The translations under genes were made by a program, and so were the position numbers. Of a stretch of 64,000 bases of DNA, positions 42,244 through 59,620 are shown piece by piece. This DNA is from Devosia lucknowensis. Its GTDB lineage: Bacteria > Pseudomonadota > Alphaproteobacteria > Rhizobiales > Devosiaceae. The notes under the pieces were generated by a model. The model saw only the letters and a list, made by a program, of their open reading frames with translations, did no database searches and was not told the DNA's origin. How positions within the stretch are numbered: the first letter of the stretch is position 1; every line of letters starts with the position of its first letter. The DNA lies in NCBI RefSeq assembly GCF_900177655.1, contig NZ_FXWK01000001.1:1736001-1800000 (forward strand), read 5' to 3'.

Positions 42244-43173
42244 CTACAGGTCGGCGAAAGCTTGGAGGGCCTGGATCGCCTTAATGGCTGCCGATGCGCG
42301 ATTTTCCACACCCAGCTTGGCATAAACCTGTTCCAGATGCTTGTTCACGGTGCGCGGAGAGAGACCAAGGATGTCGCCGATATCCTTGTTGGACTTGCCT
42401 CTGGCGATCCAGAGCAGAACGTCGCTTTCGCGAGCCGTGGTGCCGAAGTGCTGGCGCAGTGCGTCTTCCTCCCCCGCGGCCTGCATGCGCGAAAGTCGAA
42501 ACAGGTACTCTTCGCCGCCAACCAGTCCCAGAAAGGCAAATTGCAACTCAGGCCCACCAGCCCCACCGAGATCGAAACCACCGCCCGGGACGCCCGCTTC
42601 GTCATGCGTCGCCTGCCATTCCGTGAAGCGCTGCGACATATCCGGTTGCCCTGCTGCGTTCACGCCGGCCCGATCGAGAAGCCGGGTCGCCTGCGGTGTC
42701 GACCACAAGACGCCGCCGTCGCGAGCGAAAGCAACCAGATGCCGCCCCGCTGCATCGAGGGCGATCCGGGCGCTTTGCGCGCGCCGCGCATTGGCCAGAT
42801 GCACCCGAATACGGGCCCGCAGTTCATCGACATTGATCGGCTTTGACAGATAGTCGACGCCGCCGCTTTCGAGGGCATGCACGATATGCTCGGTTTCAGT
42901 CAGCCCGGTCATGAAGATGACAGGCACATGCGCCAGCGGCGCCAGCGCCTTCATCCGCTGGCAGGTTTCGAACCCGTCGAGGCCCGGCATGACAGCATCC
43001 ATCAGCACGACATCCGGTGTAATCCGCGCCACGATACCAAGTGCGGCTTCACCACTGCGCGCCACGAGCACCGTTACGCCCGCGTCTTCCAGCGCGCTGG
43101 TCAGGAAGCCGAGCGCCTCCGGGGAGTCGTCGACGAGCAGGACGATATCCTGTTCCTTTTCAATCCGGCTCAT
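42244..43173 (-). CDS. Response regulator with LuxR-type DNA-binding domain
   Basis: A 309-residue regulator. The receiver domain (1-125) has VLLVDDSPEA, phosphoacceptor D59 in VVLMDAVMPG and Lys in DYLSKPIN. A middle region (about 130-230) resembles a degenerate PAS or sensor-like module (GRHLVAFARDGGVLWSTPQ). The C-terminal LuxR/FixJ helix-turn-helix is TTARESDVLLWIARGKSNKDIGDILGLSPRTVNKHLEQVY, cited for its ends. The start at 43173 overlaps the transporter-kinase gene by 14 bases, so that kinase is its likely partner. The divergent urtA promoter is the most likely target. Confidence 0.9.
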   Translation of the reverse strand: MSRIEKEQDIVLLVDDSPEALGFLTSALEDAGVTVLVARSGEAALGIVARITPDVVLMDAVMPGLDGFETCQRMKALAPLAHVPVIFMTGLTETEHIVHALESGGVDYLSKPINVDELRARIRVHLANARRAQSARIALDAAGRHLVAFARDGGVLWSTPQATRLLDRAGVNAAGQPDMSQRFTEWQATHDEAGVPGGGFDLGGAGGPELQFAFLGLVGGEEYLFRLSRMQAAGEEDALRQHFGTTARESDVLLWIARGKSNKDIGDILGLSPRTVNKHLEQVYAKLGVENRASAAIKAIQALQAFADL

Positions 43174-46100
43174 GCCCCACCCGTTCCAACGTTTCGGCAA
43201 AGCCGTCGAAGTCGAAGTCCCGCAGGTGCTTGCGCAGTGCATCCACGAACGGCCCATGTTTGGCGTCGGCCTCGAGAGCGGTCAGCTTTGCCTCGATCCC
43301 GCGAACATGGCCGATTTGCCCCAGGCTGGCGAGTTCGCGCAAGTGCTCCGCTCCCGGCGACACAAGCACCTTCTTCTCGGCTGGCGCGACGGGCTCGACA
43401 TGCACCCAGTCGATCCCGAGATGGGTGCCCAGTCTGTCGATCAGCTGCGCCAGGTCGATGGGCTTTGCCAGCGTGTCCGAATGCCCGGCATCGGCTCCGG
43501 TCGGATTGGCTCCGTCACCGATATTGGCCGATAGCATGATGATCGGCACGACGATGCCGCCCTCTCGCAAGGCGCGCACGAGCTCCCAGCCGCTCATGCC
43601 CGGCATGCGGATATCGACGAAGTAGAGGTCGATATCGGTCTGCCCGAGCGTCTCGATGGACTCCATCCCTGCCAGGCACGCCTCGCCGCTCACGGCCGTC
43701 ACCACGTCAAATCCGAGCGGTGCGAGCATCTCCCGCATCAGTTCGCGATGGTCGATATTGTCATCAACGACCATGATCGTGCGACGGGGTCCCTTGTATC
43801 CCACGACCTGCCGGGCCGGGGCGATCCGCCGGGTTGGCCGCTCTACCTTCGCCAGCATGAGCCGGGCCTGAAACCGCGTGCCCTGCCCCGCAGTGCTAGC
43901 CACGGTGATTTCCCCGCCCAGTGTTTCGGTCAGGAGCTTGGTAATCGTGAGCCCAAGACCAAGCCCCGGAGTAAACCGGTTTCGCTCGGCCTGGCCCCGC
44001 ACGAACGGCTCGAAGATGTGCGGCAGGTCATCAGGCTCGATGCCGCTTCCGGTGTCCTCGACAGTGAACGTCGCCACTTGCATGCGATAGCCGACGTCAA
44101 ACCTGACCTGGCCCGAAGCGGTGAACTTGATGGCATTGGACAGCAGGTTGACGAGGATCTGCCGCAACCGCTTCTCGTCCGTGCGCACATGCACGGGCAG
44201 CGCCTTGGCGCGCTCGTGAACAAAGGTCAGGCCCTTTGCCTCGGCCTGCATCCGGAACATGTCGACGATCTGGTCCAGGAAATCCTGGATGTTGATTTCG
44301 TTGGAATAGACCTGCAGGCGTCCCGCTTCGATCTTTGAAATGTCGAGCAGACCGTCGATGAGGCCCGACAGATGCTCGGCGCTGCGGCGGATCACCTGCG
44401 CCGACCCGCGCCGGTTCTCGGGCAATTGCGCGTCCCTTTCGAGGATTTGCGCATAGCCCATGACCGCGTTGAGCGGCGTGCGCAATTCGTGGCTGAGACC
44501 GACCACATAGCGCGACTTGGCCTGGTTGGCCGCTTCCGCCTTGTCCTTGGCCCGTTGCAATTCAGCATCGGTGCGCGAATGTGCGTCGATCTCCTTGAGC
44601 AGCAGCGTGTTCTGTCGCGAGCTTTCCTCCTCCGCCACCAGCCGGCTGTCATGCGCCAGCACGATGAACCAGGTCATGACCCCAGCCGCCACCGCCAGCA
44701 CGAAGAACACCACCAGCAGCGTGCCGCCGACCACTTCGCTCGTCTGCGGCGCCGAACGGCTTGCGAAATAGTAAATCAGCCCGAGCATGCCCCCCAGGAT
44801 TGCCAGCGCCGAAGCCATCGCAATTCCGTATCGCCCAAGCCGCGTCCGCAACCTGTCGATTGCCCATTGTGGCAGCACCGTCGCCGCCACCGCATGCGTT
44901 TGCGCCCGGAAATGGGCATGCGGCTTGCACATGTCGTGACAGCGGGCATCGAGCGAGCAGCACAGCGAGCAGATCGGCGCCGCATAGGCCGGGCACCAGG
45001 CCATGTCCTCCGGCTCGAACGGATGCTCGCAGACCGAGCAGGTCAGCGAACTCTTCGCTGCCCAGGACTTGCGTGGCTTGCGCGCCAGATAGTAACGACC
45101 CTTTGTCGCCCAGGCGATGGCGGGCGAAGCGGTGAAGCACACGACCAGCGCGATATAGGGCGCAAGCGCCGATGCGGTTTCTCCGAAAGCGCCGAAGTGA
45201 GCGACGAGGGCGATGGTGGCTGAGATCAGCATCGAACCGACGCCCACCGGATTGATGTCGTAGAGATGCGCCCGCTTGAACTCGATGCCGGGAGGCGCCA
45301 GCCCCAGCGGCTTGTTGACGAAGAGATCGGCCGAAATCGAGCAAAGCCACGCCATGGCGATGATCGAGAAGATGCCGAGCGTCTCCTCCAGCAGCCGGTA
45401 GATGCCAAGTTCCATTAGCAGCAGCGCAATGGCGACATTGAACAGCAGCCACACGACGCGACCCGGATGGCTATGCGTCAGCCGCGAAAAGAAGTTCGAC
45501 CAGGCCAGCGACCCGGCATAGGCGTTCATCACGTTGATCTTGAGCTGGCTGACCACGACGAACACCGCCATCAGCATAAGTGCCACGAACTCGTTGGGGA
45601 TCATGTAGCCGAAGGCAACGGCATACATGTAGCCCGGCTCGGATGCGTGCTCGGGCGACACCCCTGCCGATAGGGCCAGCACGGCAAGGAAGGATCCCGC
45701 CACCAGCTTGGGTGCCCCGACCACTACCCAGCCTGCTCCGGCAAGGAAGATCCCCAGCCGGTGCCGCCATTTCGATACCCCTTCGGCCGGCAGGAAACGC
45801 AGGAAGTCCACCTGCTCGCCGATTTGCGTCATCAGCGCCAGGATCACCGCCGAGGCAGCGCCGAACTTGGCCACTTCGAATGCGGCGATGGTGCCCGGCT
45901 CTCCGGTCGGCATGCCAAGGCCCTCGAAGGCACGCCAGAGGTCGAACGTCTCCCAATCCATGAAGGCGATGAAAAAGAACGGCAGGATGTTGAGCACGAT
46001 CCAGATCGGCTGCGTCAGCAGCTGGAATCGGCTGATCATGCTGATGCCATGCGTCACCAGCGGAATGACCACCAAGGCCGAGATGATGTGGCCGATCCAT

Positions 46101-46543
46101 AGCGGAATACCGAAGGCGAGTTCCAGCGCGCTCGACATGATCGAGGCTTCGATGGCAAAGAGGATAAAGGTGAAGCTGGCATAGATCAGCGACGTGATCG
46201 TCGAGCCGATATAGCCAAAACTGGCTCCGCGGGTGAGCAGGTCAATGTCGACACCGTGCCGTCTGGCATAGCGCGAGATCGGCACACCGACCAGCAATAT
46301 GGCGATCGAGGCGATGACGATCGCGATCAGTGCATTGGTCGTGCCGTATGAGAGCGTAATGCTGGCGCCAATGGCCTCGAGCGCCAGAAACGAGATCGCC
46401 CCGATCGCCGTCTGCGAAATCCTGTCGCTTGAAAACCGCCGCGCCGACTTGGCCGTGAAGCGCAGCGCATAGTCTTCAAGCGTCTGGTCGGCCACCCAGC
46501 GATTGTATTCGCGCCTGATGGGAATGATCCGTTGCCGCGCCAT
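43160..46543 (-). CDS. NCS1-transporter / hybrid histidine kinase fusion
   Basis: Inner-membrane protein of 1127 residues. Residues about 20-490 are a complete NCS1 (purine/cytosine/allantoin permease-like) transporter domain with about 12 helices (RGASFGYIGSTI, MTQIGEQVDFLRFLP, VSQLKINVMNAYAGSLAWSN in the usual order). A cytoplasmic cysteine cluster follows (C502, C505, C517, C525, C528, C529, C535, C539), then two more helices (574-595, 605-630). The kinase has H685 in VGLSHELRTPLNAVMGYA, N803 in LLSNAIKF and GLGLGLTITK. A receiver has D977 in YFVDIRMPGMSG; the tail (about 1040-1127) may be an HPt-like helix bundle. The start at 46543 fits the family. It faces urtA divergently. Confidence 0.9.
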   Translation of the reverse strand: MARQRIIPIRREYNRWVADQTLEDYALRFTAKSARRFSSDRISQTAIGAISFLALEAIGASITLSYGTTNALIAIVIASIAILLVGVPISRYARRHGVDIDLLTRGASFGYIGSTITSLIYASFTFILFAIEASIMSSALELAFGIPLWIGHIISALVVIPLVTHGISMISRFQLLTQPIWIVLNILPFFFIAFMDWETFDLWRAFEGLGMPTGEPGTIAAFEVAKFGAASAVILALMTQIGEQVDFLRFLPAEGVSKWRHRLGIFLAGAGWVVVGAPKLVAGSFLAVLALSAGVSPEHASEPGYMYAVAFGYMIPNEFVALMLMAVFVVVSQLKINVMNAYAGSLAWSNFFSRLTHSHPGRVVWLLFNVAIALLLMELGIYRLLEETLGIFSIIAMAWLCSISADLFVNKPLGLAPPGIEFKRAHLYDINPVGVGSMLISATIALVAHFGAFGETASALAPYIALVVCFTASPAIAWATKGRYYLARKPRKSWAAKSSLTCSVCEHPFEPEDMAWCPAYAAPICSLCCSLDARCHDMCKPHAHFRAQTHAVAATVLPQWAIDRLRTRLGRYGIAMASALAILGGMLGLIYYFASRSAPQTSEVVGGTLLVVFFVLAVAAGVMTWFIVLAHDSRLVAEEESSRQNTLLLKEIDAHSRTDAELQRAKDKAEAANQAKSRYVVGLSHELRTPLNAVMGYAQILERDAQLPENRRGSAQVIRRSAEHLSGLIDGLLDISKIEAGRLQVYSNEINIQDFLDQIVDMFRMQAEAKGLTFVHERAKALPVHVRTDEKRLRQILVNLLSNAIKFTASGQVRFDVGYRMQVATFTVEDTGSGIEPDDLPHIFEPFVRGQAERNRFTPGLGLGLTITKLLTETLGGEITVASTAGQGTRFQARLMLAKVERPTRRIAPARQVVGYKGPRRTIMVVDDNIDHRELMREMLAPLGFDVVTAVSGEACLAGMESIETLGQTDIDLYFVDIRMPGMSGWELVRALREGGIVVPIIMLSANIGDGANPTGADAGHSDTLAKPIDLAQLIDRLGTHLGIDWVHVEPVAPAEKKVLVSPGAEHLRELASLGQIGHVRGIEAKLTALEADAKHGPFVDALRKHLRDFDFDGFAETLERVGHEPD

Positions 46544-46676: not shown

Positions 46677-46692
46677 TACGTCAATCGACGTA
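46677..46692. promoter_or_regulatory. Inverted repeat upstream of urtA
   Basis: TACGTC-AATC-GACGTA is a perfect 6-bp inverted repeat with a 4-base spacer in the divergent kinase/urtA gap, 94 bases before the urtA ATG. It is a candidate operator for the LuxR-type regulator at 42244-43173, whose family binds such repeats (inference). Confidence 0.5.
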
Positions 46693-46785: not shown

Positions 46786-48084
46786 ATGAACTTCTCGCGC
46801 GCCAAAAGCGCCCTGCTCGCTGCCGCTCTCGCCGGCAGCCTCACCCTGCCCATGGTTCCCGCCATGGCGCAGGACGACACCATCAAGGTCGGCATTCTCC
46901 ACTCGCTCTCTGGCACGATGGCAATCTCGGAAACCACGCTCAAGGACACCATGCTGTTCCTCATCGAGCAGCAGAATGCCAAGGGCGGCGTTCTCGGCAA
47001 GCAGCTCGAGCCGGTCGTGGTCGACATCGCCTCGGATTGGCCGCTGGCCGCCGAACTCGCCCGCCAGCTCATCGAAGTCGATGGCGTCGACGCCGTCTTC
47101 GGCTGCTGGACCTCGGTCTGCCGCAAGTCGGTCCTGCCGGTCTTTGAAGAACTCAACTCCCTGCTCTTCTACCCTGTCCAGTACGAAGGCGAAGAAAGCC
47201 AGCGCAACGTCTTCTACACCGGCGCTTCGCCCAACCAGCAGGCCATCCCGGCCGTCGACTACCTGATGAACGAAGAAGGCGTCGAGCGCTGGGTCCTGGC
47301 CGGCACCGACTATGTCTACCCGCAGACGACCAACAAGATCCTCGAGCAGTACCTGCTCGACAAGGGCGTCGCCAAGGAAGACATCATGATCAACTACACG
47401 CCTTTCGGTCATTCCGATTGGCAGACCATCGTCTCCGACATCAAGGCCTTCGGCTCCGAGGGCAAGAAGACCGCCGTGGTCTCGACCATCAACGGCGACG
47501 CCAACGTGCCGTTCTATCGCGAGCTGGGCAACCAGGGCATCAAGGCCGAGGACATCCCCGTCGTCGCCTTCTCTGTCGGCGAAGAAGAACTGTCAGGCTT
47601 CGACACCACCCCGCTCGTGGGTCACCTCGCCGCCTGGAACTACTTCATGTCGGTCGATACCCCCGAAAACGAAGCCTTCATCGCTGATTGGCAGAAGTTC
47701 ATCGGTTCGGACACCCGCGTGACCAACGACCCCATGGAAGCCCACATGATCGGCTTCAACCTCTGGGTGAAGGCCGTGGAAGCCGCCGGTTCGACCGATG
47801 CCGACGCCGTGATCGACTCGATCGTCGGCCTCGAAACCCCGAACCTCACCGGCGGCATGGCCACCATGCTTCCCAACCACCACATCACCAAGCCCGTGCT
47901 GATCGGCGAAATCCAGGATGACGGTCAGTTCTTCGTGGTCTGGGAAACCGAAGACCTGGTCCCCGGCGACGCCTGGTCCGACTTCCTGCCCGAATCCAAG
48001 ATGCTCGAAGCCGATTGGACCGCTCCGATCAACTGCGGCAACTACAACACCGAAACCAAGACCTGCGGCGCCGCTGCGCAGTAA
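46786..48084 (+). CDS. urtA: Urea ABC transporter substrate-binding protein
   Basis: Periplasmic urea-binding protein of 432 residues with a signal peptide (MNFSRAKSALLAAALAGSLT, ending near PAMAQ). Diagnostic UrtA blocks are VGILHSLSGTMAISETTLKD, FGCWTSVCRKSVLPVFEELN and LLFYPVQYEGEESQRNVFYTG, plus the NYFMSVDTPENEAF region. GAGGGA lies 9 bases before the ATG at 46786. It is the first gene of urtABCDE; a repeat element separates it from urtB, which often leaves the binding protein more highly expressed than the permease genes. Confidence 0.96.
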   Translation: MNFSRAKSALLAAALAGSLTLPMVPAMAQDDTIKVGILHSLSGTMAISETTLKDTMLFLIEQQNAKGGVLGKQLEPVVVDIASDWPLAAELARQLIEVDGVDAVFGCWTSVCRKSVLPVFEELNSLLFYPVQYEGEESQRNVFYTGASPNQQAIPAVDYLMNEEGVERWVLAGTDYVYPQTTNKILEQYLLDKGVAKEDIMINYTPFGHSDWQTIVSDIKAFGSEGKKTAVVSTINGDANVPFYRELGNQGIKAEDIPVVAFSVGEEELSGFDTTPLVGHLAAWNYFMSVDTPENEAFIADWQKFIGSDTRVTNDPMEAHMIGFNLWVKAVEAAGSTDADAVIDSIVGLETPNLTGGMATMLPNHHITKPVLIGEIQDDGQFFVVWETEDLVPGDAWSDFLPESKMLEADWTAPINCGNYNTETKTCGAAAQ

Positions 48085-48088
48085 CGTC

Positions 48089-48202
48089 ACCCCCACCTGA
48101 CCTCCCCCTGAAACAGGGGGAGGAACTGGCTGGTGGCTCGGGCAAGATCTTGCCCCCACACAATCTACCCCTCCCCCTACCATGGGGAGGCCGGGTGGGG
48201 GT
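48089..48202. repeat. Palindromic intergenic repeat element between urtA and urtB
   Basis: The outer arms 48089-48107 (ACCCCCACCTGACCTCCCC) and 48184-48202 are inverted copies with 17 of 19 matches. An inner hairpin CCTCCCCCTG...CAGGGGGAGG occupies 48101-48122. The whole element is about 114 bases and looks like the short palindromic repeats found between genes in alphaproteobacteria. It may form a strong RNA structure that limits read-through from urtA into urtB. Confidence 0.75.
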
Positions 48203-48242
48203 TCCCACCAAATCCAAAAGCACGACAAGGACTTCCCAAGCG

Positions 48243-49847
48243 ATGCTGACTCATCTTCTCCGCCTGGCGCTGCTGACCCTGTCGCTCTTTTGCCCCGCGC
48301 TCGCGCAAGCCCAAACCACCGACATCCCCGCCCGCATCGCCGCTATGGGCGAAGCCAACCTTCGCGAACTTACGCAGATCGTCACCGATCTGGCCGCCAC
48401 CGGCGATGCCGCCGTCATCCCTGTCCTCACCGCTCTGGGCGAGGGCAACCTCTACATTGACGACACCTCCGGCCGCATCGTCATCCAGTCTGGCTCGACA
48501 ACCACCGATCCACTGAGCGGCGACGCCGTCGACCTCGGCACCGAAGCCGACCTTTCTCGCATCCGCGTCAACAACGGCCTGCGGCGCGATATCTCGGCTG
48601 CCCTGTCAGGCATGACGCTGATGAGCGACAATCCCGCGACGCGCCTTTCGGCTGCGCAGGGGTTCCTCGTCAAGCCCGATCCCGCGAACATTCCTCTGCT
48701 CGATGAAGCCATAGCAGCCGAAACCGACGCCAGCGTGCTGCGCACCATGCAGGCCGCGCGCGCCGTCACCATCCTTTCGGACGACGAAGCCAGCATCGAG
48801 GAAAAGCAGGCCGCCGTTCCCGCAGTGGTCGCTGGCGCTGGCCGCAATGCCATCACCATCCTCAATGGCGCGCTCGCGAATGCCCCTGATGAAGTGAAAC
48901 CTACCATCCAGTCCGCCATCGCCGGCCTCGAGCAGGGCCGCGCCGTCTGGGCCGCGCTGCAAAACGTCTGGTTCGGCCTCTCGCTTGGATCCGTCCTCCT
49001 GCTCGCCGCCATCGGCCTTGCCATCACCTTCGGCGTCATGGGCGTCATCAACATGGCCCACGGCGAAATGGTCATGCTCGGCGCCTATACGACCTTCCTC
49101 GTCCAGCTCGTCATCCGTCAGAACTTTCCGGGCCTCCTCGACTATTCCCTGCTGATCGCCCTGCCCTGCGCTTTCCTCGTCACCGGCGCCATCGGCGTCG
49201 GTATCGAGCGCGGCATCATCCGCTGGCTCTACGGGCGCCCGCTCGAAACCCTCCTCGCCACATGGGGCCTGTCGCTGATCCTGCAGCAGACCGTGCGCTC
49301 GATCTTCGGGCCGACCAACCAGATGGTCATCGCCCCCACCTGGATGTCCGGCTCCACCGAGTTCTTCGGCCTCGCCATCACCTACAACCGCTTCTGGATC
49401 GTCATCTTCGCGCTGATCGTCTTCTTCATGCTGCTGCTGATCCTCAATCGCACCCCGCTTGGCCTCCAGATGCGCGCCGTCACGCAGAACCGCCGCATGG
49501 CCTCCTCCATGGGCATCCGCACCCCCTTCGTCGACGCCATGACCTTCGGCCTCGGCTCGGGCATTGCCGGCCTTGCCGGTGTCGCGCTCACCCAGATCGA
49601 CAACATCTCCCCCAACCTCGGCCAGAACTACATCATCGACAGCTTTATGGTCGTGGTCTTCGGCGGCGTCGGCAATCTCTGGGGCACACTGGTCGGCGCA
49701 CTGACGCTCGGCGTCGCCAACAAATTCCTCGAGCCCTATGCCGGCGCGGTCCTGGGCAAGATCCTGATCCTGGTGCTGATCATACTCTTCATCCAGCGGC
49801 GCCCTCGCGGACTGTTTGCCCTCAAGGGACGGGCGGTGGAGCAGTGA
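48243..49847 (+). CDS. urtB: Urea ABC transporter permease UrtB
   Basis: Inner-membrane permease of 534 residues. A signal-like N-terminus (MLTHLLRLALLTLSLFCPALAQA) and an Ala-rich helical region (about 25-235) that is typical of UrtB precede the LivH-like membrane domain (about 240-534): GVMGVINMAHGEMVMLGAY, ERGIIRWLYGRPLETLLATWGLSLIL (cited in part), NRRMASSMGIRT, FGGVGNLWGTLVGA. The start at 48243 was chosen because upstream codons run through the repeat element. It forms the channel with UrtC. Confidence 0.94.
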   Translation: MLTHLLRLALLTLSLFCPALAQAQTTDIPARIAAMGEANLRELTQIVTDLAATGDAAVIPVLTALGEGNLYIDDTSGRIVIQSGSTTTDPLSGDAVDLGTEADLSRIRVNNGLRRDISAALSGMTLMSDNPATRLSAAQGFLVKPDPANIPLLDEAIAAETDASVLRTMQAARAVTILSDDEASIEEKQAAVPAVVAGAGRNAITILNGALANAPDEVKPTIQSAIAGLEQGRAVWAALQNVWFGLSLGSVLLLAAIGLAITFGVMGVINMAHGEMVMLGAYTTFLVQLVIRQNFPGLLDYSLLIALPCAFLVTGAIGVGIERGIIRWLYGRPLETLLATWGLSLILQQTVRSIFGPTNQMVIAPTWMSGSTEFFGLAITYNRFWIVIFALIVFFMLLLILNRTPLGLQMRAVTQNRRMASSMGIRTPFVDAMTFGLGSGIAGLAGVALTQIDNISPNLGQNYIIDSFMVVVFGGVGNLWGTLVGALTLGVANKFLEPYAGAVLGKILILVLIILFIQRRPRGLFALKGRAVEQ

Positions 49848-49856
49848 GCATCAAGG

Positions 49857-49978
49857 CCCCCTCACCCGTCTCGGGCTTCGCCCGATCCACCCTCTCCCCG
49901 AGTGGGAGAGGAATGGCGCTCACCCCTTATTCTTCTCCCTCTCGGGAAGAAGGTGGCGCGCAGCGCCGGATGAGGGGG
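49857..49978. repeat. Palindromic intergenic repeat element between urtB and urtC
   Basis: The ends CCCCCTCA (49857-49864) and TGAGGGGG (49971-49978) are inverted copies. Inside are three hairpins: TCGGGCTTCGCCCGA, CTCTCCCC-GAGT-GGGAGAG and CTTCTCCC-TCTC-GGGAAGAAG. The sequence type (TCCGGCGCTGCGCGCC on one strand) resembles repeats seen in many Hyphomicrobiales genomes. It is a different element from the one before urtB. Confidence 0.75.
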
Positions 49979-50004
49979 ATTATCTATTCACTCGGAGCCT
50001 GCCC

Positions 50005-51204
50005 ATGCTGACCCAAGCCCTGTTCCGCGCCCTAGACAAAAAGGCCGTCTGGGTCATCGGCATCTTCCTTGCTGTCGCCATCCTCGTGCCCATGGCCAAC
50101 CTGCTCATCCCGCCAGGTCAATTCGGCCACGTCCCGACCTACATGGTCTCCCTCCTCGGCAAGTATCTCAGCTACGCCATACTCGCCCTCGCGCTCGACC
50201 TGGTCTGGGGCTATTGCGGCATTCTCTCGCTCGGTCACGGCGCCTTCTTCGCGCTCGGCGGCTATGCCATGGGCATGTATCTCATGCGCCAGATCGGCAG
50301 TCGCGGCGTCTATGGCAATCCGACGCTCCCCGACTTCATGGTGTTTCTCAACTGGAAGGAACTGCCCTGGTACTGGCTGGGCTTCGATAATTTCTGGTTC
50401 GCCATGGCCATGGTCGTCTTGGTGCCGGGCCTTCTCGCCTTTGTATTCGGCTTCTTTGCCTTCCGCAGCCGCGTCACCGGCGTCTATCTCTCGATCATCA
50501 CCCAGGCGATGACCTTCGCCCTGCTCCTGGCCTTCTTCCGCAACGACATGGGCTTTGGCGGCAATAACGGCCTCACCGACTTCAAGGATATCCTCGGCGC
50601 GCCGGTTCAGGCCCAGACCACGCGCCTGGCGCTCTTTGCTGCTACCGCCGTCACCCTAGCCTTGTCGGTCCTCGTCTGCTCGATGATCGTCAATTCCAAG
50701 CTCGGCAAGGTCATGGTGGCCGTCCGCGACGCCGAGAGCCGCACCCGCTTCATCGGCTATCGCGTCGAATACGTAAAACTCTTCGCCTTCACCGTGTCGG
50801 CTGTCATGGCCGGTGCCGCCGGCGCCCTCTACGTGCCGCAGGTCGGCATCATCAACCCGAGCGAATTCGATCCCGCCAATTCCATAGAGGTGGTCATCTG
50901 GGCCGCAGTCGGCGGGCGCGGTACGCTGATCGGCCCCATCATCGGCGCCATCCTCGTCAATCTCGGCAAGTCCTGGTTCACCACCACCTTGCCCGAGTTC
51001 TGGCTCTTCGCCCTCGGCGCGCTCTTCATCTTCACTACGCTCTTCCTTCCCAAGGGCATCGTCGGACTGTGGTCGCAGTTCGCCGGCAGGCGGAGGATCA
51101 AGCCGTCCCAGCCGGCGTCGCCCACACCTGCCCAGTCTGCCGATATCGAACGCGGTGAAGATCCTGCGACTTTCGATGGCGCGCAACCCAAGCCCGCGGA
51201 GTAA
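50005..51204 (+). CDS. urtC: Urea ABC transporter permease UrtC
   Basis: Second inner-membrane permease of the urea importer, 399 residues, LivM-like. Features are DLVWGYCGILSLGHGAFFALGGYAMG, cited in part, the RVTGVYLSIITQAMTFALLLAFF helix and VAVRDAESRTRFIGY with the EAA-like loop, then AGALYVPQVGIINPSEFDPANSIEVVIWAAVGGRGTL (cited in part). The start at 50005 lies just after the repeat element; earlier in-frame codons belong to that element. The C-terminal Pro/Ala tail (SQPASPTPAQSADIERG) is not conserved. Confidence 0.95.
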   Translation: MLTQALFRALDKKAVWVIGIFLAVAILVPMANLLIPPGQFGHVPTYMVSLLGKYLSYAILALALDLVWGYCGILSLGHGAFFALGGYAMGMYLMRQIGSRGVYGNPTLPDFMVFLNWKELPWYWLGFDNFWFAMAMVVLVPGLLAFVFGFFAFRSRVTGVYLSIITQAMTFALLLAFFRNDMGFGGNNGLTDFKDILGAPVQAQTTRLALFAATAVTLALSVLVCSMIVNSKLGKVMVAVRDAESRTRFIGYRVEYVKLFAFTVSAVMAGAAGALYVPQVGIINPSEFDPANSIEVVIWAAVGGRGTLIGPIIGAILVNLGKSWFTTTLPEFWLFALGALFIFTTLFLPKGIVGLWSQFAGRRRIKPSQPASPTPAQSADIERGEDPATFDGAQPKPAE

Positions 51205-51209
51205 CGGCG

Positions 51210-51959
51210 ATGAGCAAAGCCACTGACACGATGCTTTATCTCGACGGCGTCTCCGTCGCGTTCGACGGCTTCAAGGCCATCAACAACCTCTCGATCATCG
51301 TCCGTCCCGCCGAAATGCTGGCCATCATCGGTCCAAACGGCGCCGGCAAGACCACGATGATGGACATCATCACCGGCAAGACCAGCCCGGATGCCGGGGA
51401 AGTCCTGTTCGATGGCCGCACCGATCTGACCAAACTCGACGAGGCCGCCATCGCCAATCTGGGCATTGGCCGGAAATTCCAGAAGCCAACTGTATTCGAG
51501 AGCCACACCGTCTGGGACAATCTCGAAATGGCGCTGAGAAAACCGCGCGGGATTTTCTCGGCGCTGTTCTACACCGCCAGCAACGACGACGTCGCGCGCA
51601 TCACCGAAATTCTCGAGACGGTGCGTCTCCTCCACCGCAAGGACGAACTCGCCGCCAATCTCAGTCATGGCCAGAAGCAATGGCTCGAAATCGGCATGCT
51701 GCTGGCGCAGGACCCAAAACTCCTGCTCGTCGACGAGCCAGTCGCGGGCATGACCGACAGCGAAACCGAAGAGACCGCCAAGCTCCTGCGCGAAATCTCG
51801 CAGACTCGATCCGTCGTCGTCGTCGAACACGACATGAGTTTCGTCCGCGAACTGGGCTCCCGGGTTGTCTGCCTGGCCGAAGGCTCCGTGCTCGCCGAAG
51901 GCACACTCGAACAGGTCAGCGCCAATCCCGTCGTGATCGAAAGGTATCTCGGACGATGA
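51210..51959 (+). CDS. urtD: Urea ABC transporter ATP-binding protein UrtD
   Basis: Cytoplasmic ATPase of the urea importer, 249 residues, LivG-like. Walker A is IGPNGAGKTTMMDIITGKT, the signature is NLSHGQKQWLEIGMLLAQDP and Walker B is LLLVDEPVAGMTDSE. The SHGQ form of the signature is normal in this branched-chain/urea family. It starts 5 bases after urtC and overlaps urtE by 4 bases. Confidence 0.95.
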   Translation: MSKATDTMLYLDGVSVAFDGFKAINNLSIIVRPAEMLAIIGPNGAGKTTMMDIITGKTSPDAGEVLFDGRTDLTKLDEAAIANLGIGRKFQKPTVFESHTVWDNLEMALRKPRGIFSALFYTASNDDVARITEILETVRLLHRKDELAANLSHGQKQWLEIGMLLAQDPKLLLVDEPVAGMTDSETEETAKLLREISQTRSVVVVEHDMSFVRELGSRVVCLAEGSVLAEGTLEQVSANPVVIERYLGR

Positions 51960-52660
51960 CCACCTCCCTTTCCGTCGACGCAATCGACCTCCACTACGGG
52001 GCCGCCCAGGCACTCAAGGGTATATCCATCACCTGCCGCCCCGCCCGCATCACTGCCGTTCTCGGCCGAAACGGCGTAGGCAAGTCATCGACCCTGCGGG
52101 CCATTACCGGGGTCAATCACATCTCATCAGGCGCGATAAATTTCGGCGATGAAGTATTAAGACGCTCTCCACCCTACAAGCGCGCGCGCATGGGGCTGGG
52201 CTACGTTCCGCAGGGTCGCGAAATCTTTCCGCTTTTGACGGTGAAAGAAAATCTCGAAACCGGCTATGCCGGCTTGGCACGCGCCGAGCGCAACATTCCC
52301 GAATACATCTTCGAGCTGTTTCCCGTGCTCAAATCCATGCTGGGACGACGTGGAGGCGATCTCTCGGGTGGTCAGCAGCAGCAGCTCGCGATTGGCCGCG
52401 CCCTCGTCACCCGCCCCAAGGTTCTGGTTCTCGATGAACCCACGGAGGGCATTCAGCCTTCGATTATCAAGGATATCGGCCGCGCCCTTCAATTCCTGCG
52501 CGACGAAAAGGGCATGACCATTCTGCTGGTAGAGCAGTTTCTCGATTTCTGCCGCGAAATCGCCGACGACATCTACGTCATGGACCGAGGCGAGATCATG
52601 CATTCCGGACCCGCCAGCGATCTCGACCGCCCTGAGGTTCGTCGTCACCTCATGGTCTAA
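51956..52660 (+). CDS. urtE: Urea ABC transporter ATP-binding protein UrtE
   Basis: Second ATPase of the urea importer, 234 residues, LivF-like. Walker A is LGRNGVGKSSTLRAITG, the signature LSGGQQQQLAIGRALVTRP, Walker B VLVLDEPTEGIQPSII. The ATG at 51956 overlaps the urtD stop (ATGA), which fixes the start against the longer open frame. It ends directly at the terminator hairpin shared with the convergent small secreted protein gene, so the urt transcript stops before ureD. Confidence 0.95.
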   Translation: MTTSLSVDAIDLHYGAAQALKGISITCRPARITAVLGRNGVGKSSTLRAITGVNHISSGAINFGDEVLRRSPPYKRARMGLGYVPQGREIFPLLTVKENLETGYAGLARAERNIPEYIFELFPVLKSMLGRRGGDLSGGQQQQLAIGRALVTRPKVLVLDEPTEGIQPSIIKDIGRALQFLRDEKGMTILLVEQFLDFCREIADDIYVMDRGEIMHSGPASDLDRPEVRRHLMV

Positions 52661-53130: not shown

Positions 53131-53973
53131 GTGATTTTTTCTTCGAATGCAAAATTACGCGAGCCGGTTCTCCAGCGGGCACGCGGTATTGGTCGCGTGG
53201 CGACCAAGAATGTCGCCGGCCGGACGCGTCTTGATACGCTGTTCCAGGAAGGGTGCGGCAAGATCCGGCTGCCCAATACGCACTCATCCAGTCTCGAGGC
53301 TGTGCTCATCAATACCGCCGGCGGCATTACCGGTGGTGACCGGCTGGATTGGCAGGCGGACGTCTCCGAAGGCGGCCATCTGGTCCTCACCACCCAGGCC
53401 TGCGAACGCAGCTACCGCTCCACCGGCGACTTCGCGACCGTCTCGACCCGTCTTGAGGTTGCCGCCGGTGCCCATCTGGACTGGTTGCCTCAGGAAACCA
53501 TCCTGTTCGCCGGCAGCAAGCTCGATCGCGTGCTTGAGGCCAACCTGGCCGATGGCGCCACCCTCACCGCCATCGAGTCCGTCATTCTCGGCCGCGATGC
53601 AATGGGCGAGGATGCCGCCGACGCCCTCCTCCATGATCGCTGGCGTATTCGCCGCAATGGCCGCCTGCTCCATGCCGAGGCGACCCGGCTCGAAGCCGAT
53701 CCTGCGGAGCGCAATGCTTTGTCGCTCTTGTCGGGCAATCGCGCTTTCGCAACCATTCTCCACATTGCCCCCGACGCGGATGTGGCCGAGCAAACCTGCA
53801 TGCGCCTGCGCACCCGCTTCGATCCTGCCGGGGCCATCGCTGCCAGCGCCAACGGAGAACGTCTCGTCATACGTGCCATGGCGCCCACGGGGCTTGCCTT
53901 GCGCCGCCTCATTGTTCCAGTTTTGCTGCAGCTGAGCGGTGCCGGAACCCTGCCGCGCCTCTGGCATCTCTGA
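53131..53973 (+). CDS. ureD: Urease accessory protein UreD
   Basis: Scaffold chaperone that binds apo-urease and recruits UreF/UreG for nickel insertion, 280 residues. The blocks [32 protein letters not shown] and [18 protein letters not shown] are diagnostic. The start is GTG at 53131, with AGGA about 11 bases upstream. It leads the urease operon; the 29-base gap to ureA shows co-transcription. Confidence 0.95.
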
Positions 53974-54002
53974 CACTTCCGCCCATACCAAGACGGTCCA
54001 CC

Positions 54003-54305
54003 ATGAACCTCACGCCCCGCGAAAAAGACAAACTGCTGATTGCCATGGCCGCCACGGTCGCCCGCCGGCGCCTGGAACGCGGCGTCAAGCTCAACCATCC
54101 CGAAGCGATCGCGCTCATCACCGATTTCGTGGTTGAGGGCGCCCGTGATGGTCGCGCGGTGTCCGAGCTGATGGAAGCCGGTGCACATGTGATCACCCGC
54201 GATCAGGTCATGGACGGCATCGCCGAGATGATCCACGACGTCCAGGTCGAAGCAACTTTCCCCGACGGCACCAAGCTCGTCACCGTCCACCAGCCGATCC
54301 GCTAA
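54003..54305 (+). CDS. ureA: Urease gamma subunit
   Basis: Structural urease subunit of exactly 100 residues, the family length. It opens [27 protein letters not shown] and contains [21 protein letters not shown] and [18 protein letters not shown], of which these parts are standard. It forms the (alpha-beta-gamma)3 enzyme with UreB and UreC in the cytoplasm. It lies between ureD and the hupE/ureJ-like gene. Confidence 0.97.
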
Positions 54306-54315
54306 CGAGGCCTCC

Positions 54316-54894
54316 ATGCTCAAGCGCAGCCTTCTCACTCTGGCCATCACCCTTGCCGCCACCCTGCCGGCCTTTGCCCATCTCGATCCGGCCGAGCATG
54401 GGTCCTTCGCCGCCGGCTTCAGCCACCCGCTATTCGGCCTCGATCATATTCTGGCAATGGTTGCCGTCGGCCTCTGGGCGGCACAGCAGGGGGGCCGCGC
54501 TCTGTGGCTGGTGCCGTCGGCCTTCGTGGGCACCATGGCCGTCGGCTTCGCGCTGGCCATCGCCGGCATTCCCTTGCCCTTCGTCGAGCCCGTCATCCTG
54601 GCATCCGTCATTTTCATTGGCATCGCCGTCGCGCTGGCCCTGCCGGTCCCAACCTCGGCAGTCGCCGCAATGGTCGGCTTCTTCGCCTTCTTCCATGGCC
54701 ACGCCCATGGCGGCGAACTGGGCGAGGCCGGCGCCTGGGAATTTGCGACCGGCTTCATTCTCGCCACCGCCCTCCTGCATGTTGCAGGCATCGTTGCAGG
54801 CCTCGCGCTTGGCAAGGTGAGTGGCAAGGTCCTCACCCGCATCGCCGGAGCAGCCACCGCGCTCGGCGGCGTCTATCTGGCCGTCGGCGGCTGA
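54316..54894 (+). CDS. ureJ: HupE/UreJ family membrane protein, probable nickel permease
   Basis: A 192-residue membrane protein with a signal peptide ([21 protein letters not shown]) and about six helices. The first mature His motif [23 protein letters not shown], cited for its His residues, and [14 protein letters not shown] are the conserved metal-related motifs of HupE/UreJ proteins. Relatives transport Ni(II) for urease or hydrogenase. Its place between ureA and ureB, as in several alphaproteobacterial urease operons, supports nickel supply to urease. Confidence 0.92.
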
Positions 54895-54905
54895 GAGGAA
54901 CGCGC

Positions 54906-55211
54906 ATGATGCCCGGAGAAGTCATTTCCGCCAACGGCGATATCGAACTCAATGTCGGTGCCGCACAGATCGTGCTCGAGGTCGCCAACACTGGCGATCG
55001 ACCAATCCAGGTCGGTTCGCACTACCATTTCTTTGAAACCAATGCCGGTCTGCGCTTCGATCGCGACAAGGCGCGCGGCATGCGGCTCGATATTGCCGCC
55101 GGCACGGCTGTCCGCTTCGAGCCCGGTCAGACCCGGGAGGTGCGCCTCGTGCCCATAGGCGGCGATCGGCAAATTTACGGTTTCCGTCAACAGGTAATGG
55201 GAGGTCTTTGA
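54906..55211 (+). CDS. ureB: Urease beta subunit
   Basis: Structural urease subunit of 101 residues. It reads [16 protein letters not shown], then [21 protein letters not shown] and the [19 protein letters not shown] block, all standard UreB. The ATG at 54906 has GAGG 7 bases before it, so it is preferred to the longer open frame that overlaps ureJ. It assembles with UreA and UreC. Confidence 0.97.
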
Positions 55212-55305
55212 CTCTGTTGGCAAGGCGCAGTTTGCTTGCCCCCAAGCATGGCGCTCCGCGGCGAAAACTGGTTTAAGGACTGCGATCCCTATTCAGGACC
55301 GTGCC

Positions 55306-55707
55306 ATGACCATCGAGCCCACCAAGGAAGCCCAGTTCAAGCAGCGCTTCATCTCCGTCTTGGCGGATTTGCAGGAAGACGGCGTCAAGGATCCCCAGGC
55401 CATGGGACTGGTGGGAAGCCTCGCCGCTGAACTTGCCGACAATCTCGAGCAGAAGAGCTGGACTTCCAGCAAGCAGGCCATGACGTCTGCCGTCTACGAC
55501 GCCTTGCTGGAATCCTTTCAGAAGCGCGGTAACCAGTTCTATCAGGATGGCAAGACCAAGCACGCCTACGCCATCCAGTTGCTCGGCGTCTCCCTCGTCG
55601 CCACCACCCAACGTGGCGATGCCGACATCGCCGCCGGCGAGAAACTGCTCGATCAGGTGATCGACAGCGCCGTCGCTCAATATCGCCGGACACGCCCGCG
55701 GCACTGA
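55306..55707 (+). CDS. Conserved-looking protein inside urease operon, function unknown
   Basis: A 133-residue soluble protein, [21 protein letters not shown] onward, predicted mostly helical, with no Cys, no signal peptide and no membrane segment. AGGAC lies 6 bases before the ATG. The gene sits between ureB and ureC on the same strand (95 and 101 bases away), a place often empty in other urease operons or taken by an unrelated orf. No function is recognised; a role in urease assembly or expression is only suggested by position. Confidence 0.7.
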
Positions 55708-55808
55708 TCCACCGGGGCGCAACGGCTTCACGATCCGCACCCTCGGGATGCGGCAAGCCAAGTCAGCCCCGGGCCATCATCGTCCCGGACAGTCATACGG
55801 GACACGAC

Positions 55809-57518
55809 ATGCCAGCACGTATTTCTCGCGCCACCTACGCCGATATGTATGGCCCGACCACGGGCGACAAGGTGCGTCTGGCCGATACCGAACTCTTCAT
55901 CGAAGTGGAAAAGGACTTCACCACCTATGGTGAGGAGGTCAAGTTCGGCGGCGGCAAGGTTATTCGCGACGGCATGGGCCAGTCGCAGCGCACGCGTGCC
56001 GAGGGCGCCGTCGATACCGTCATCACCAATGCGCTGGTTGTCGATTACACTGGCATCTACAAAGCCGATATCGGCCTCAAGAACGGCCGCATCGCTGGCA
56101 TCGGCAAGGCCGGCAATCCCGACACGCAGTCCGGCGTCGACATCATCATCGGCCCCTCGACCGAAGCCATTGCCGGCGAAGGCAAGATCCTCACAGCCGG
56201 CGGCATGGACGCCCATATCCATTTCATCTGCCCCCAGCAGATCGAGGAAGCGCTGATGAGTGGCGTCACCACCATGCTCGGCGGCGGCTCCGGCCCGGCC
56301 CACGGCACTCTCGCCACCACTTGCACCGGCGCCTGGCATGTCGAGCGCATGATCGAAAGCTTCGACGCTTTCCCGATGAACCTGGCGCTGGCCGGCAAGG
56401 GCAATGCCTCAGTCCCCGCCCCGCTCGTCGAAATGATCCTCTCCGGCGCTTCGGCCCTGAAACTGCATGAGGACTGGGGCACCACCCCCGCCGCCATCGA
56501 CAACTGCCTCTCGGTCGCCGACGACTACGATGTACAGGTGATGATCCACACCGACACGCTCAATGAATCGGGCTTTGTCGAGGACACGGTCGGCGCCTTC
56601 AAGGGCCGCACCATCCATGCCTTCCATACCGAAGGCGCCGGCGGTGGTCACGCCCCGGACATCCTGAAGGTCGCGGGCCTGCCCAACGTCATTCCTTCCT
56701 CGACCAATCCGACCCGTCCCTACACGGTCAACACCATCGCCGAGCATCTCGACATGCTCATGGTTTGCCACCACCTCGATCAGTCGATCCCCGAAGACGT
56801 CGCCTTCGCCGAAAGCCGCATCCGCAAGGAAACCATCGCGGCCGAGGACATCCTCCACGACATGGGTGCGCTTTCCGTAATCTCCTCCGACAGCCAGGCC
56901 ATGGGCCGCGTCGGCGAAGTCTTGATCCGCACCTGGCAGACCGCCGACAAGATGAAGCGCCAGCGCGGCAAGCTCGCCGAGGAAACCGGCGACAACGACA
57001 ATTACCGCGTCCGCCGCTACATCGCCAAATACACGATCAATCCCGCTATCGCCCACGGGCTCAGCCAGCACATCGGCTCGGTGGAAGTCGGAAAGCGCGC
57101 CGATCTCGTGCTCTGGAACCCGGCCTTCTTCGGCGTGAAGCCCGAAATGGTCATCCTCGGCGGATCCATCGCTGCCGCGCCCATGGGAGATCCCAACGCC
57201 TCGATCCCGACGCCCCAGCCGATGCACTATCGCCCGATGTTCGGCGCCTATGGCAAACTTGTCAGCCGCTCCTCGGTCACCTTCATCTCGCAGGCCGCCC
57301 ACGACGCCGGTCTGCGCAATCGCCTCGGCGTCGAAAAGGACCTCCTGCCCGTCCACAACACCCGCGGCGGCATCGGCAAGTCCTCGATGAAGCTCAACAC
57401 CGCCACCCCCAAGATCGACGTGCACCCCGAAACCTACGAAGTGCGCGCCGACGGTGTCCTGCTGACGTGCGAACCCGCCACAGTGCTGCCCATGGCGCAG
57501 CGCTATTTCTTGTTCTGA
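55809..57518 (+). CDS. ureC: Urease alpha subunit (catalytic)
   Basis: Catalytic nickel subunit of urease, 569 residues, hydrolysing urea to ammonia and carbamate. The dinickel ligands are in place: H136 and H138 ([12 protein letters not shown]), the carbamylated K218 (ALKLHEDWG), H247 (VMIHTDT), H273 ([15 protein letters not shown]) and D361 ([10 protein letters not shown]). The mobile flap has C320 and H321 in [13 protein letters not shown]. No change in any key residue is seen, so the enzyme should be active. ATG at 55809. Confidence 0.98.
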
Positions 57519-57599
57519 CCACCCCTTGCGCGGTCGCGTTATCGACATGATGGTGGGATGAAGTAATTGCATCTGCTTCGTCCCACTGGAGAAACTGCC

Positions 57600-58031
57600 A
57601 TGACCAAGGCGAAAATACTGTTCGGTGCCGTGCTCGGCGCTGCCCTGGCCACATCCGCCGTTGCGCAGGAGGACGTTGCCCCGCCATCCGCCGCCGTCGC
57701 ACCCGTTGCGGGTCCATCGACCTCGGCAAGCCTCGTCATCACCATCGAGAGCGCCGGCGACATCGAGCGCAGCGTCACGCCCTACCAGTGCGACGATGGC
57801 CAGTCGCTGAGCGTGCAGTACATCAATGCCGTCCCCAATTTTCTCGCCATCGTCCCGGTGGACGGGCAGAACCTGGTGATGGCCACGGCGCTTTCGGCTT
57901 CGGGCGCCCGCTATGTCGGCGGCCCCTACGAGTGGTGGACCCATCAGGGCGAGGCCACACTGCGCGACCTAACTCAGGATGAGGATGCCGAGCCGCTTGC
58001 CACCTGTACCGCCATCAGCAACACGCCCTGA
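57600..58031 (+). CDS. MliC-like secreted protein inside urease operon
   Basis: A 143-residue exported protein with signal peptide MTKAKILFGAVLGAALATSAVAQ. The mature domain (about 60-143) resembles the MliC C-type lysozyme inhibitor fold: YQCDDGQSLSVQYIN, ALSASGARYVGGPYEWWTHQGEATL and a closing Cys in LATCTAIS, which could form the usual disulfide. Known MliC proteins inhibit lysozyme at the cell surface. The region between ureC and ureE is unusual for such a gene; the link to urease is unclear. Confidence 0.75.
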   Translation: MTKAKILFGAVLGAALATSAVAQEDVAPPSAAVAPVAGPSTSASLVITIESAGDIERSVTPYQCDDGQSLSVQYINAVPNFLAIVPVDGQNLVMATALSASGARYVGGPYEWWTHQGEATLRDLTQDEDAEPLATCTAISNTP

Positions 58032-58056
58032 CCCGGCCGAGGAGCCCTTTTCGTCA

Positions 58057-58530
58057 ATGCTGCGCGTATCCGCCTTGCTCCCTGCCAACCACGGCCAGGG
58101 CACACCCTTCGATACTGTCGTGCTCGAGCATGACGAGCGACGCGTCCGCCGCAAGATGCTGCGCCTTGCCAGGGGCGATGAAGTGCTCCTCGACTTCCCC
58201 CAGACCGTGACCCTCGACAATGCCAGCGTGCTGCAGCTGGACGATGGCCGGCTGGTCGAAGTCATCGCCGCCGATGAGTTGCTCTACGAGATCCGCGCGC
58301 GCGATGCGGGTCACCTCCTTCGTCTCGCTTGGCATATCGGCAACCGGCACACCCCCGCCCAGCTCGAGCCCGGTCGCATTCTCATCAAGCGCGACCATGT
58401 GCTCAAGACCATGCTCGAAGGCCTGGGCGCCACGGTTGCCAACGTCTCCGAGCCGTTCTTCGCCGAACATGGCGCCTACCATAGTCATTCGCATGGCGAC
58501 GCCGGCCATGCTCTGCTCAACCGCAAGTGA
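58057..58530 (+). CDS. ureE: Urease accessory protein UreE, nickel chaperone
   Basis: Nickel metallochaperone of 157 residues that hands Ni to the UreG/F/D complex. It has the N-terminal peptide-binding domain (FDTVVLEHDERRVRRKML) and the metal-binding domain with LLRLAWHIGNRHTPAQLE and ILIKRDHVLKTMLEGLGATV. The C-terminal His-rich segment is HGAYHSHSHGDAGH. The start at 58057 is chosen by homology; GAGGAG is 13 bases upstream. Its stop overlaps ureF (GTGA). Confidence 0.95.
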   Translation: MLRVSALLPANHGQGTPFDTVVLEHDERRVRRKMLRLARGDEVLLDFPQTVTLDNASVLQLDDGRLVEVIAADELLYEIRARDAGHLLRLAWHIGNRHTPAQLEPGRILIKRDHVLKTMLEGLGATVANVSEPFFAEHGAYHSHSHGDAGHALLNRK

Positions 58531-59183: not shown

Positions 59184-59608
59184 ACATGGTCCTGTCGTCT
59201 TTCATGTTCATCGCCCTGTTTGCGGTGTCCATCGCCCATCTGCTGTGGTCCGCCGGGCGCACCTGGCCGATCCGCAATCAGAAACTGTTGGCCCAGACCG
59301 TGGTCGGCACCCCCGGCGTCGAGCGCGTGCCGCGTCTGCCATCGCTCGTGGTCGGTATACTTGCCTTCGCGGCAGCCGTCTTCGCGCTCGCTCTGGCCGA
59401 TCACGACAGCGGCGGTCCGCTCATGGATATAGCTGGCCTTGGCCTGGCCCTGCTGTTTCTGGCACGCGGCTTTGCCGGCTACACCGCCTGGTGGGCCGCG
59501 CAATTCCCCGAGCCGAACTTTCGCCTCAACGACCGCAAGGTTTATTCTCCACTCTGCATCTTCCTCGGGCTGGGCTTTCTCGGCCTCGTCGTTCTGCGTC
59601 ATCTCTGA
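59180..59608 (+). CDS. DUF3995-type membrane protein inside urease operon
   Basis: A 142-residue membrane protein with four predicted helices (about 4-24, 52-72, 79-100, 120-141) and no recognised catalytic residues. SIAHLLWSAGRTWPIRN and the late ARGFAGYTAWWA are typical of the DUF3995 family. It overlaps ureF by 4 bases and is followed 12 bases later by ureG, so it is firmly in the urease operon. Its role is unknown; a channel or assembly role is speculation. Confidence 0.75.
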   Translation: MNMVLSSFMFIALFAVSIAHLLWSAGRTWPIRNQKLLAQTVVGTPGVERVPRLPSLVVGILAFAAAVFALALADHDSGGPLMDIAGLGLALLFLARGFAGYTAWWAAQFPEPNFRLNDRKVYSPLCIFLGLGFLGLVVLRHL

Positions 59609-59620
59609 TCGGAGCTGCCA

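What the first reader, a model, noticed from the sequence alone, without database searches (positions are those of the whole stretch)
43160..46543. Transporter turned sensor: NCS1 permease fused to hybrid kinase with an eight-Cys cytoplasmic module
A full NCS1 permease-like domain precedes kinase, receiver and a helical tail in one 1127-residue protein. Between permease and kinase sits C-x2-C ... CC-x5-C-x3-C (C502-C539), suggesting a zinc or iron-sulfur site. With urtA divergent and a LuxR-type regulator overlapping, it may sense urea, allantoin or purines and tie nitrogen uptake to redox or metal state.
Basis: inference. Interest (0 to 1): 0.7.

Follow-up and report, generated by a model that had tools for sequence, protein, structure and literature searches.

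The report
Permease-type sensor kinase for urea/amides
A bacterial protein that looks like a nucleobase transporter joined to a signalling kinase, with an unvarying eight-cysteine connector, sits beside urea or amide uptake genes in many bacteria and is probably the sensor that switches those genes on.

Summary

New here: (1) 54 of 55 family loci lie near urt-type, urease, formamidase or amidase genes; the exception is a 4.8-kb contig. (2) A LuxR-type regulator gene adjoins the kinase in 53 of 55. (3) The kinase/urtA gap holds TACGTCAATCGACGTA, the genome's only TACGY-N6-RCGTA site. Such a site precedes 17 of 17 kinase-adjacent urtA genes (3 of 5 urtA-like), 0 of 13 non-adjacent copies and 0 of 55 urtA genes in kinase-free genomes.

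Best reading: a permease turned receptor for urea/short-chain amides that controls their import and hydrolysis, the Cys module being a zinc-type coupler where CbrA has STAC. Ligand, metal and regulator binding are inferred. Purines/allantoin are unsupported; redox sensing is untested. New variant of a known kind (transporter-kinase transceptors).

The parts
43160..46543 (-). NCS1-like permease / eight-Cys / hybrid histidine kinase, 1127 aa
45068..46468 (-). 12-TM NCS1-like permease domain, residues 26-492
44921..45046 (-). eight-Cys cytosolic module, residues 500-541
   Evidence: invariant Cys; in 299 genomes 42 strong profile matches, all inside this kinase family, plus 3 weak ones
44660..44830 (-). 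predicted extra two-TM hairpin between Cys module and kinase, residues 572-628
   Evidence: two hydropathy peaks; helices 568-597 and 599-659 in the model
43853..44518 (-). HisKA + HATPase_c, residues 676-897; H685 is the predicted phospho-acceptor
   Evidence: H685, N799, N803, D830, G832, G834 in 56 of 56
43430..43777 (-). receiver domain, residues 923-1038, D977
   Evidence: D977 in 54 of 56, 2 gaps
42244..43173 (-). REC-GerE (LuxR-type) response regulator; listed ORF begins at 43257, start at 43173 inferred
   Evidence: adjacent regulator on the same strand in 53 of 55 phylum loci and downstream in 80 of 80 named loci
46677..46692 (.). inverted repeat TACGTCAATCGACGTA, candidate operator of the response regulator
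   Evidence: single TACGY-N6-RCGTA site in the whole genome; tied to the kinase; coordinates
46786..48084 (+). urtA, urea ABC transporter binding protein, divergent
   Evidence: TIGR03407 541.3 bits; ORF; ATG position
48015..52660 (+). urtBCDE-like transporter genes (listed ORFs; true starts of urtB, urtC not settled; urtE about 51956-52660)
   Evidence: ORFs, named by eye and by order; same order in relatives; no family search of these four
53131..60253 (+). urease cluster: ureD 53131-53973, HupE/UreJ 54316-54894, ureC 55809-57518, ureF 58527-59183, ureG 59621-60253
   Evidence: ORFs; Pfam

Best explanation
The protein is a transceptor-type sensor. Its NCS1-fold domain binds urea or a short-chain amide (formamide, acetamide) at the membrane. 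The bound/unbound conformations pass through the cytosolic eight-Cys module (probably two structural zinc ions) and the TM13-14 hairpin to the HisKA dimer. H685 autophosphorylates, with D977 of its own receiver as a relay or sink, and phosphate reaches the LuxR-type regulator encoded next to it. The regulator binds TACGY-N6-RCGTA and activates urtABCDE (with the urease genes downstream in this window) or, in other lineages, the urtA-like/formamidase/amidase genes. Shown here: the architecture, invariance, gene context, and the DNA element with its dependence on the kinase. Inferred: ligand identity, zinc, direction of regulation, and that the regulator binds the element.
For: Domains. Purifying selection on permease (91 of 467 positions invariant), Cys module (14 of 42) and catalytic residues. 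Context: 54 of 55 loci with urt-type, FmdA, AmiE or UreC genes, including the two receiver-less members L080/L081 beside FmdA at 69-70% identity; curated names for representative neighbours. Operator: 41 of 133 upstream regions within 3 mismatches of the 16-mer against 3 of 1330 dinucleotide shuffles and 0 of 133 gene-internal controls; TACGY-N6-RCGTA in 68 of 133 (mononucleotide-shuffle mean 0.175); in 35 further loci, without a site in the 450 bp upstream of the kinase, it sits upstream of urtA (103 of 135 in all); within 400 bp upstream of FmdA in 8 of 55 FmdA loci; 17 of 17 kinase-adjacent urtA, 3 of 5 adjacent urtA-like, 0 of 13 non-adjacent copies, 0 of 55 urtA in kinase-free genomes; genome-wide strict form in 20 of 30 kinase-bearing and 3 of 120 other genomes, 19 of 21 sites in the former at the kinase/urtA(-like) locus (kinase status).
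Against: No ligand, phosphotransfer, metal or expression data exist here. PF02133 does not match. 10 of 30 kinase-bearing genomes lack the strict site and 3 of 120 kinase-free genomes have it; 32 of 135 loci lack the relaxed site at the tested places; 2 of 5 adjacent urtA-like genes lack it. No HPt domain was listed that could carry phosphate from D977 to the regulator. The context has both urea and amide genes, so one ligand cannot be fixed. General nitrogen regulators are known to control urea genes in many bacteria (recalled), so the kinase may only modulate.
Confidence: 0.6

Rival explanations
1. A working transporter as well as a sensor: the NCS1-like domain imports an amide or nucleobase-like compound and signals its flux, as proposed for CbrA and histidine.
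For: Full 12-TM fold and strong conservation; the D-x-x-R / Y pair that links bundle and hash in CodB is kept (D246, R249, Y342 invariant, gaps aside).
Against: The aligned Na2 hydroxyl positions (CodB T278, T279) fall on I336/N337 or K335/I336. 45 of 55 loci already hold a urtA-type ABC importer gene. A K or R at the K335 place is shared with the five stand-alone relatives by eye (sequences), so loss of transport is not proved.
Confidence: 0.25
2. The eight-Cys module is a redox, iron-sulfur or metal-status sensor that gates the kinase.
For: Eight invariant Cys; cytosolic, next to the kinase.
Confidence: 0.15
3. The kinase does not bind free ligand but reads the state of the neighbouring ABC transporter or its binding protein UrtA.
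For: Tight genetic link with urtA or urtA-like genes.
Against: 9 of 55 loci have urease or formamidase genes without a detected urtA/urtA-like gene (3 of these 9 show urtC; one further locus, the short L084, shows none of the genes). Flanks are about 9 kb at most, so a distant urtA is possible.
Confidence: 0.15
4. The ligand is a nucleobase, hydantoin or allantoin, as for characterised NCS1 permeases.
For: Fold family.
Against: Context is urea and amides; W108 and F204 of CodB align with non-aromatic residues. MetT shows that NCS1 permeases can take acyclic compounds (PMC13390362, passages).
Confidence: 0.07

Closest known systems
CbrA / CrbS / RpuS (SLC5-STAC histidine kinases)
   Same: LeuT-fold transporter domain, small cytosolic coupling domain, then histidine kinase; CrbS works with the LuxR-family regulator CrbR, which needs an inverted repeat (PMC13022988 and PMC5715377, passages; PMC9100948, listing)
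   Different: Here NCS1-like instead of SLC5, an eight-Cys module plus a predicted TM hairpin instead of the four-helix STAC, and a urea/amide context instead of histidine, acetate or pyruvate
Ks-Amt5 ammonium sensor kinase
   Same: Nitrogen-source transporter fold fused to a histidine kinase (PMC5764959, search listing only)
   Different: Amt fold, described from an anammox bacterium; no Cys module is mentioned in what I saw
NCS1 permeases CodB and Mhp1
   Same: Fold, profile similarity, D/R and Y hallmarks of CodB
   Different: No Pfam PF02133 match, no aromatic sandwich or Na2 hydroxyls by alignment, fused to a kinase; family signature Q240-I-G-E-Q-V-D246 in TM6
Unstudied HK + LuxR genes beside urtABCDE operon III and near fmdA of Ectopseudomonas guguanensis G3
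   Same: Same kind of gene neighbourhood (PMC13296017, passages)
   Different: Only labelled in a figure legend; whether that HK has the permease domain was not checked
FYVE/RING/LIM-type zinc modules
   Same: Eight metal-ligand-like residues, beta hairpin plus helix; among the best structural rows

Membership tests
NCS1 permease family | Match to the curated family model PF02133 | tested here: not met
   No match in the window protein, in 48 homologues or in the own genome. NCBIfam cytosine permease matches 21 of 48, best E 5.6e-9. I therefore call the domain NCS1-like, not a member
NCS1 permease family | 12-TM LeuT fold closest to CodB/Mhp1 | tested here: met
NCS1 permease family | Aromatic sandwich (CodB W108, F204) | tested here: not met
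   Aligned by hhalign with L128 and M238 (L237 if a one-residue gap is closed) (residues from PMC9379551 passages, numbering checked on E. coli CodB). Single alignment at 18% identity, so local shifts are possible
NCS1 permease family | Na2-site hydroxyls (CodB T278, T279) | tested here: not met
   I336/N337, or K335/I336 if a one-residue gap is closed
Hybrid histidine kinase | HisKA with His, HATPase_c N/G boxes, receiver Asp and Lys | tested here: met
SLC5-STAC transceptor kinases (CbrA type) | SLC5-type transporter domain | tested here: not met
SLC5-STAC transceptor kinases (CbrA type) | STAC domain | tested here: inconclusive
   None listed by Pfam; I did not check that Pfam holds a STAC model. 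The position is taken by the Cys module and TM hairpin
Two-component system with LuxR-type regulator | Cognate REC-HTH gene beside the kinase | tested here: met
   53 of 55, 80 of 80
Two-component system with LuxR-type regulator | Regulator binds the inverted repeat | not testable with these tools
   Only co-occurrence shown
Treble-clef / cross-brace zinc module | Known zinc-module fold | tested here: inconclusive
Treble-clef / cross-brace zinc module | Bound zinc | not testable with these tools
   -

The most novel reading that the evidence does not exclude
A widespread, undescribed family of urea/short-chain-amide receptors arose by converting an NCS1-type permease into the input domain of a hybrid kinase. 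It acquired a private eight-Cys (zinc) coupling module and runs a one-operator circuit (TACGY-N6-RCGTA, often a single strict site per genome) that turns on urea/amide uptake and hydrolysis across Pseudomonadota.
Probability: 0.5. Interest if true: 0.75.

Novelty: new variant of a known kind. Interest (0 to 1): 0.63.

Why it matters
A transporter-kinase fusion is called rare in the CbrA preprint (PMC13022988, passages), yet this one reaches the 8000-homologue cap of the search and occurs in 52 of 398 sampled genomes of the phylum (matches at E 1e-162 or better). It offers a candidate for a dedicated sensor of urea or small amides, with a defined operator and target genes, so the idea can be tested directly. 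It also poses a clean mechanistic question: how a permease fold talks to a kinase through a cysteine module instead of STAC.

Tried and rejected
Rejected: (a) sequence-only proof of the permease by Pfam or by a profile search of PDB sequences failed; profile-profile and fold comparison were needed. (b) Nucleobase/allantoin ligand: no supporting context. (c) A simple sigma-54 -24/-12 pattern was not found in the kinase/urtA gap (crude regular expressions). (d) The Cys module as a known family: no convincing Pfam or PDB match (the E 8e-5 to a C2H2 zinc-finger protein is a sum over weak repeats); three weak module hits elsewhere (E 0.0016-0.0065) were not followed. (e) Another inverted repeat at 46604-46627 was not followed.

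Errors and corrections: one search used a wrong window frame for row 1 and was replaced. One search took the wrong side of urtA for minus-strand loci (it gave 13 of 25); one search corrects it and its counts are used. In one search row L091 appears not to be a true kinase/urtA gap. Rows left out: 55 of the 56 strong non-own matches were taken as loci of 4.8-19.9 kb (G111:C125 left out because it ends near a contig end); 2 of 135 loci lacked 450 bp upstream, hence 133. One search examined 90 of the 103 places listed (80 of 82 UrtA-type, 10 of 21 UrtA-like); 'adjacent' was set by hand from the coordinates (within about 4 kb). The 11 UrtA-like places not examined there include kinase-adjacent ones of G012, G028, G035, G091 and G159, which are in the earlier set (site in L050, L044, L045, L040; none in L057), and G513:C9, not examined at all. 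The 55 kinase-free urtA genes come from 54 genomes, and one region was cut to 546 bp. The palindrome was derived from loci that include G000 and G043, so 15 of the 17 adjacent urtA genes are outside that genome set, though some may be species also present among the named loci. Fisher values ignore phylogeny. By my hand reading, ten families hold both kinase-bearing and kinase-free genomes: in seven, strict sites occur, only in kinase-bearing members (in one, G043, the site is away from urt); in three (f2, f5, f103) there is none. Kinase-free exceptions: G428, G456, G517. The 80 named loci are the best 80 of 578, so they lean to close relatives.

Literature: the listings of ten searches showed no paper on an NCS1-kinase fusion or on this repeat; not all ten were aimed at this, and only open-licence PMC text is covered. 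GrtK (PMC12918730, outline and passages) was considered and is unrelated by domain (PilS-like).

Full report
WHAT IS THERE. The minus-strand frame 43160-46543 encodes 1127 residues from an ATG. Pfam recognises only the signalling half: HisKA, HATPase_c, Response_reg. The genome's closest relatives by this protein are Devosia (best homologues 90-93% identical over residues 1-640). The genome holds one copy. Of 398 sampled genomes of the phylum, 67 had any match at E 0.001; 57 strong matches (E 1e-162 or better) lie in 52 genomes, own included. JGI's automatic names for some already read 'signal transduction histidine kinase/purine-cytosine permease-like protein', so the fusion has been seen by machines, but my searches showed no paper on it.

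THE SIGNALLING PART. H685, N799, N803, D830, G832, G834 are in 56 of 56, and D977 in 54 of 56 with 2 gaps. No HPt domain was listed. A regulator like the window's REC-GerE protein adjoins on the same strand in 53 of 55 phylum loci and follows in 80 of 80 named loci. The two without it, L080 and L081, belong to a second subfamily of about 885 aa without receiver; L080's neighbour is a REC-HisKA-HATPase protein.

CONTEXT. In the window, urtA-E and a urease cluster run divergently. Of 55 phylum loci, 54 hold at least one of UrtA/UrtA-like (45), FmdA formamidase (37), AmiE amidase (19), UreC (10) or UrtC within the fetched 4.8-19.9 kb; the exception, L084, is a 4.8-kb contig. In 80 named loci, 56 have a true-UrtA-type gene divergent, 14 a UrtA-like one divergent, 6 a UrtA-like one otherwise placed, 4 none; 18 hold FmdA. 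Representatives score above NCBIfam cut-offs for formamidase FmdA, aliphatic amidase and UrtA. Even the receiver-less L080 and L081 lie beside FmdA at 69-70% identity. The common denominator is urea or short-chain amide. No matched random-locus control was run for this context count.

THE OPERATOR. Comparing the kinase/urtA gap among Devosia records showed a fully kept block. The 16-mer TACGTCGATTGACGTA occurs with at most 3 mismatches in 41 of 133 upstream regions, against 3 of 1330 dinucleotide shuffles and 0 of 133 gene-internal controls. As TACGY-N6-RCGTA it is in 68 of 133 (mononucleotide-shuffle mean 0.175) and occurs once in the own genome, at window 46677-46692. In 35 more loci, without a site in the 450 bp upstream of the kinase, it is within 600 bp upstream of the urtA match; 103 of 135 in all (in L032 and L035 other ORFs lie between kinase and urtA). 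In 8 of 55 FmdA loci it lies within 400 bp upstream of fmdA. As a control, 150 genomes of the order were searched for UrtA (84 positive) and for the kinase (30 positive). Within 900 bp upstream of urtA, the site is present in 17 of 17 kinase-adjacent genes and 3 of 5 adjacent urtA-like genes. It is absent from 8 of 8 urtA and 5 of 5 urtA-like non-adjacent copies in kinase-bearing genomes, and from 55 of 55 urtA genes in kinase-free genomes (places not examined are told under Tried and rejected). Genome-wide, the strict form TACGTCRNNYGACGTA occurs in 20 of 30 kinase-bearing and 3 of 120 kinase-free genomes, and 19 of the 21 sites in the former are at the kinase/urtA(-like) locus (Fisher p 1e-14 ignoring phylogeny). 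This is what a dedicated operator would look like. That the LuxR-type regulator is the binder is inferred. CrbR, the LuxR-type partner of an SLC5 kinase, likewise needs an inverted repeat, of different sequence (PMC5715377, passages).

MECHANISM AND LIMITS. The best model is ligand binding in the permease fold, relay through the Cys module and TM hairpin, His phosphorylation, and regulator-driven activation of urea/amide uptake and hydrolysis. The weakest steps are the ligand and the metal. Activation rather than repression is assumed. Urea versus amide specificity may differ between lineages. Spread outside Pseudomonadota was not tested.

NOVELTY. Transporter-kinase fusions are known (CbrA, CrbS, RpuS; Ks-Amt5, PMC5764959, listing only). 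The listings of ten searches of the open PMC library showed none with an NCS1-type domain and no report of the repeat. A genome paper labels an HK and a LuxR gene beside a second urtABCDE, with fmdA in the same locus-tag range, without study (PMC13296017, passages). I rate it a new variant of a known kind.

Noticed in passing
L080 8263-10947, L081 8199-10856: A second subfamily of about 885 aa keeps permease, Cys module and kinase but lacks the receiver; it lies beside FmdA formamidase, and in L080 its neighbour is a REC-HisKA-HATPase protein.
   Followed up: partly
L049, L053, L054, L058, L059, L063, L064, L168: The inverted repeat also lies 2-105 bp upstream of the fmdA match, suggesting formamidase is a second target promoter.
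   Followed up: partly
G428:C141:343406, G456:C22:121846, G517:C2:53787; also G438:C1:479344 and G043:C1337:68650: Strict copies of the repeat in three kinase-free genomes and at two other places in kinase-bearing genomes; their neighbours were not looked at.
   Followed up: no
window 38060-40417 (-) and 40490-40954 (-): A molybdopterin oxidoreductase gene (Pfam) beside a regulator that reads like Lrp/AsnC by eye (not searched).
   Followed up: partly
window 41063-41815 (-): A 250-aa protein with a signal-like N terminus and a glycine/asparagine-rich stretch; no Pfam family.
   Followed up: partly
window 46604-46627: A second imperfect inverted repeat (GCATGATTT...AAATCACGC) in the kinase/urtA gap.
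   Followed up: no
L086 4249-5742 and 5624-7468: A stand-alone NCS1-type permease (TIGR00800, 59 bits, below cut-off) with R at the TM8 place of K335 by eye, followed by a nitrilase/amidase-type gene.
   Followed up: partly
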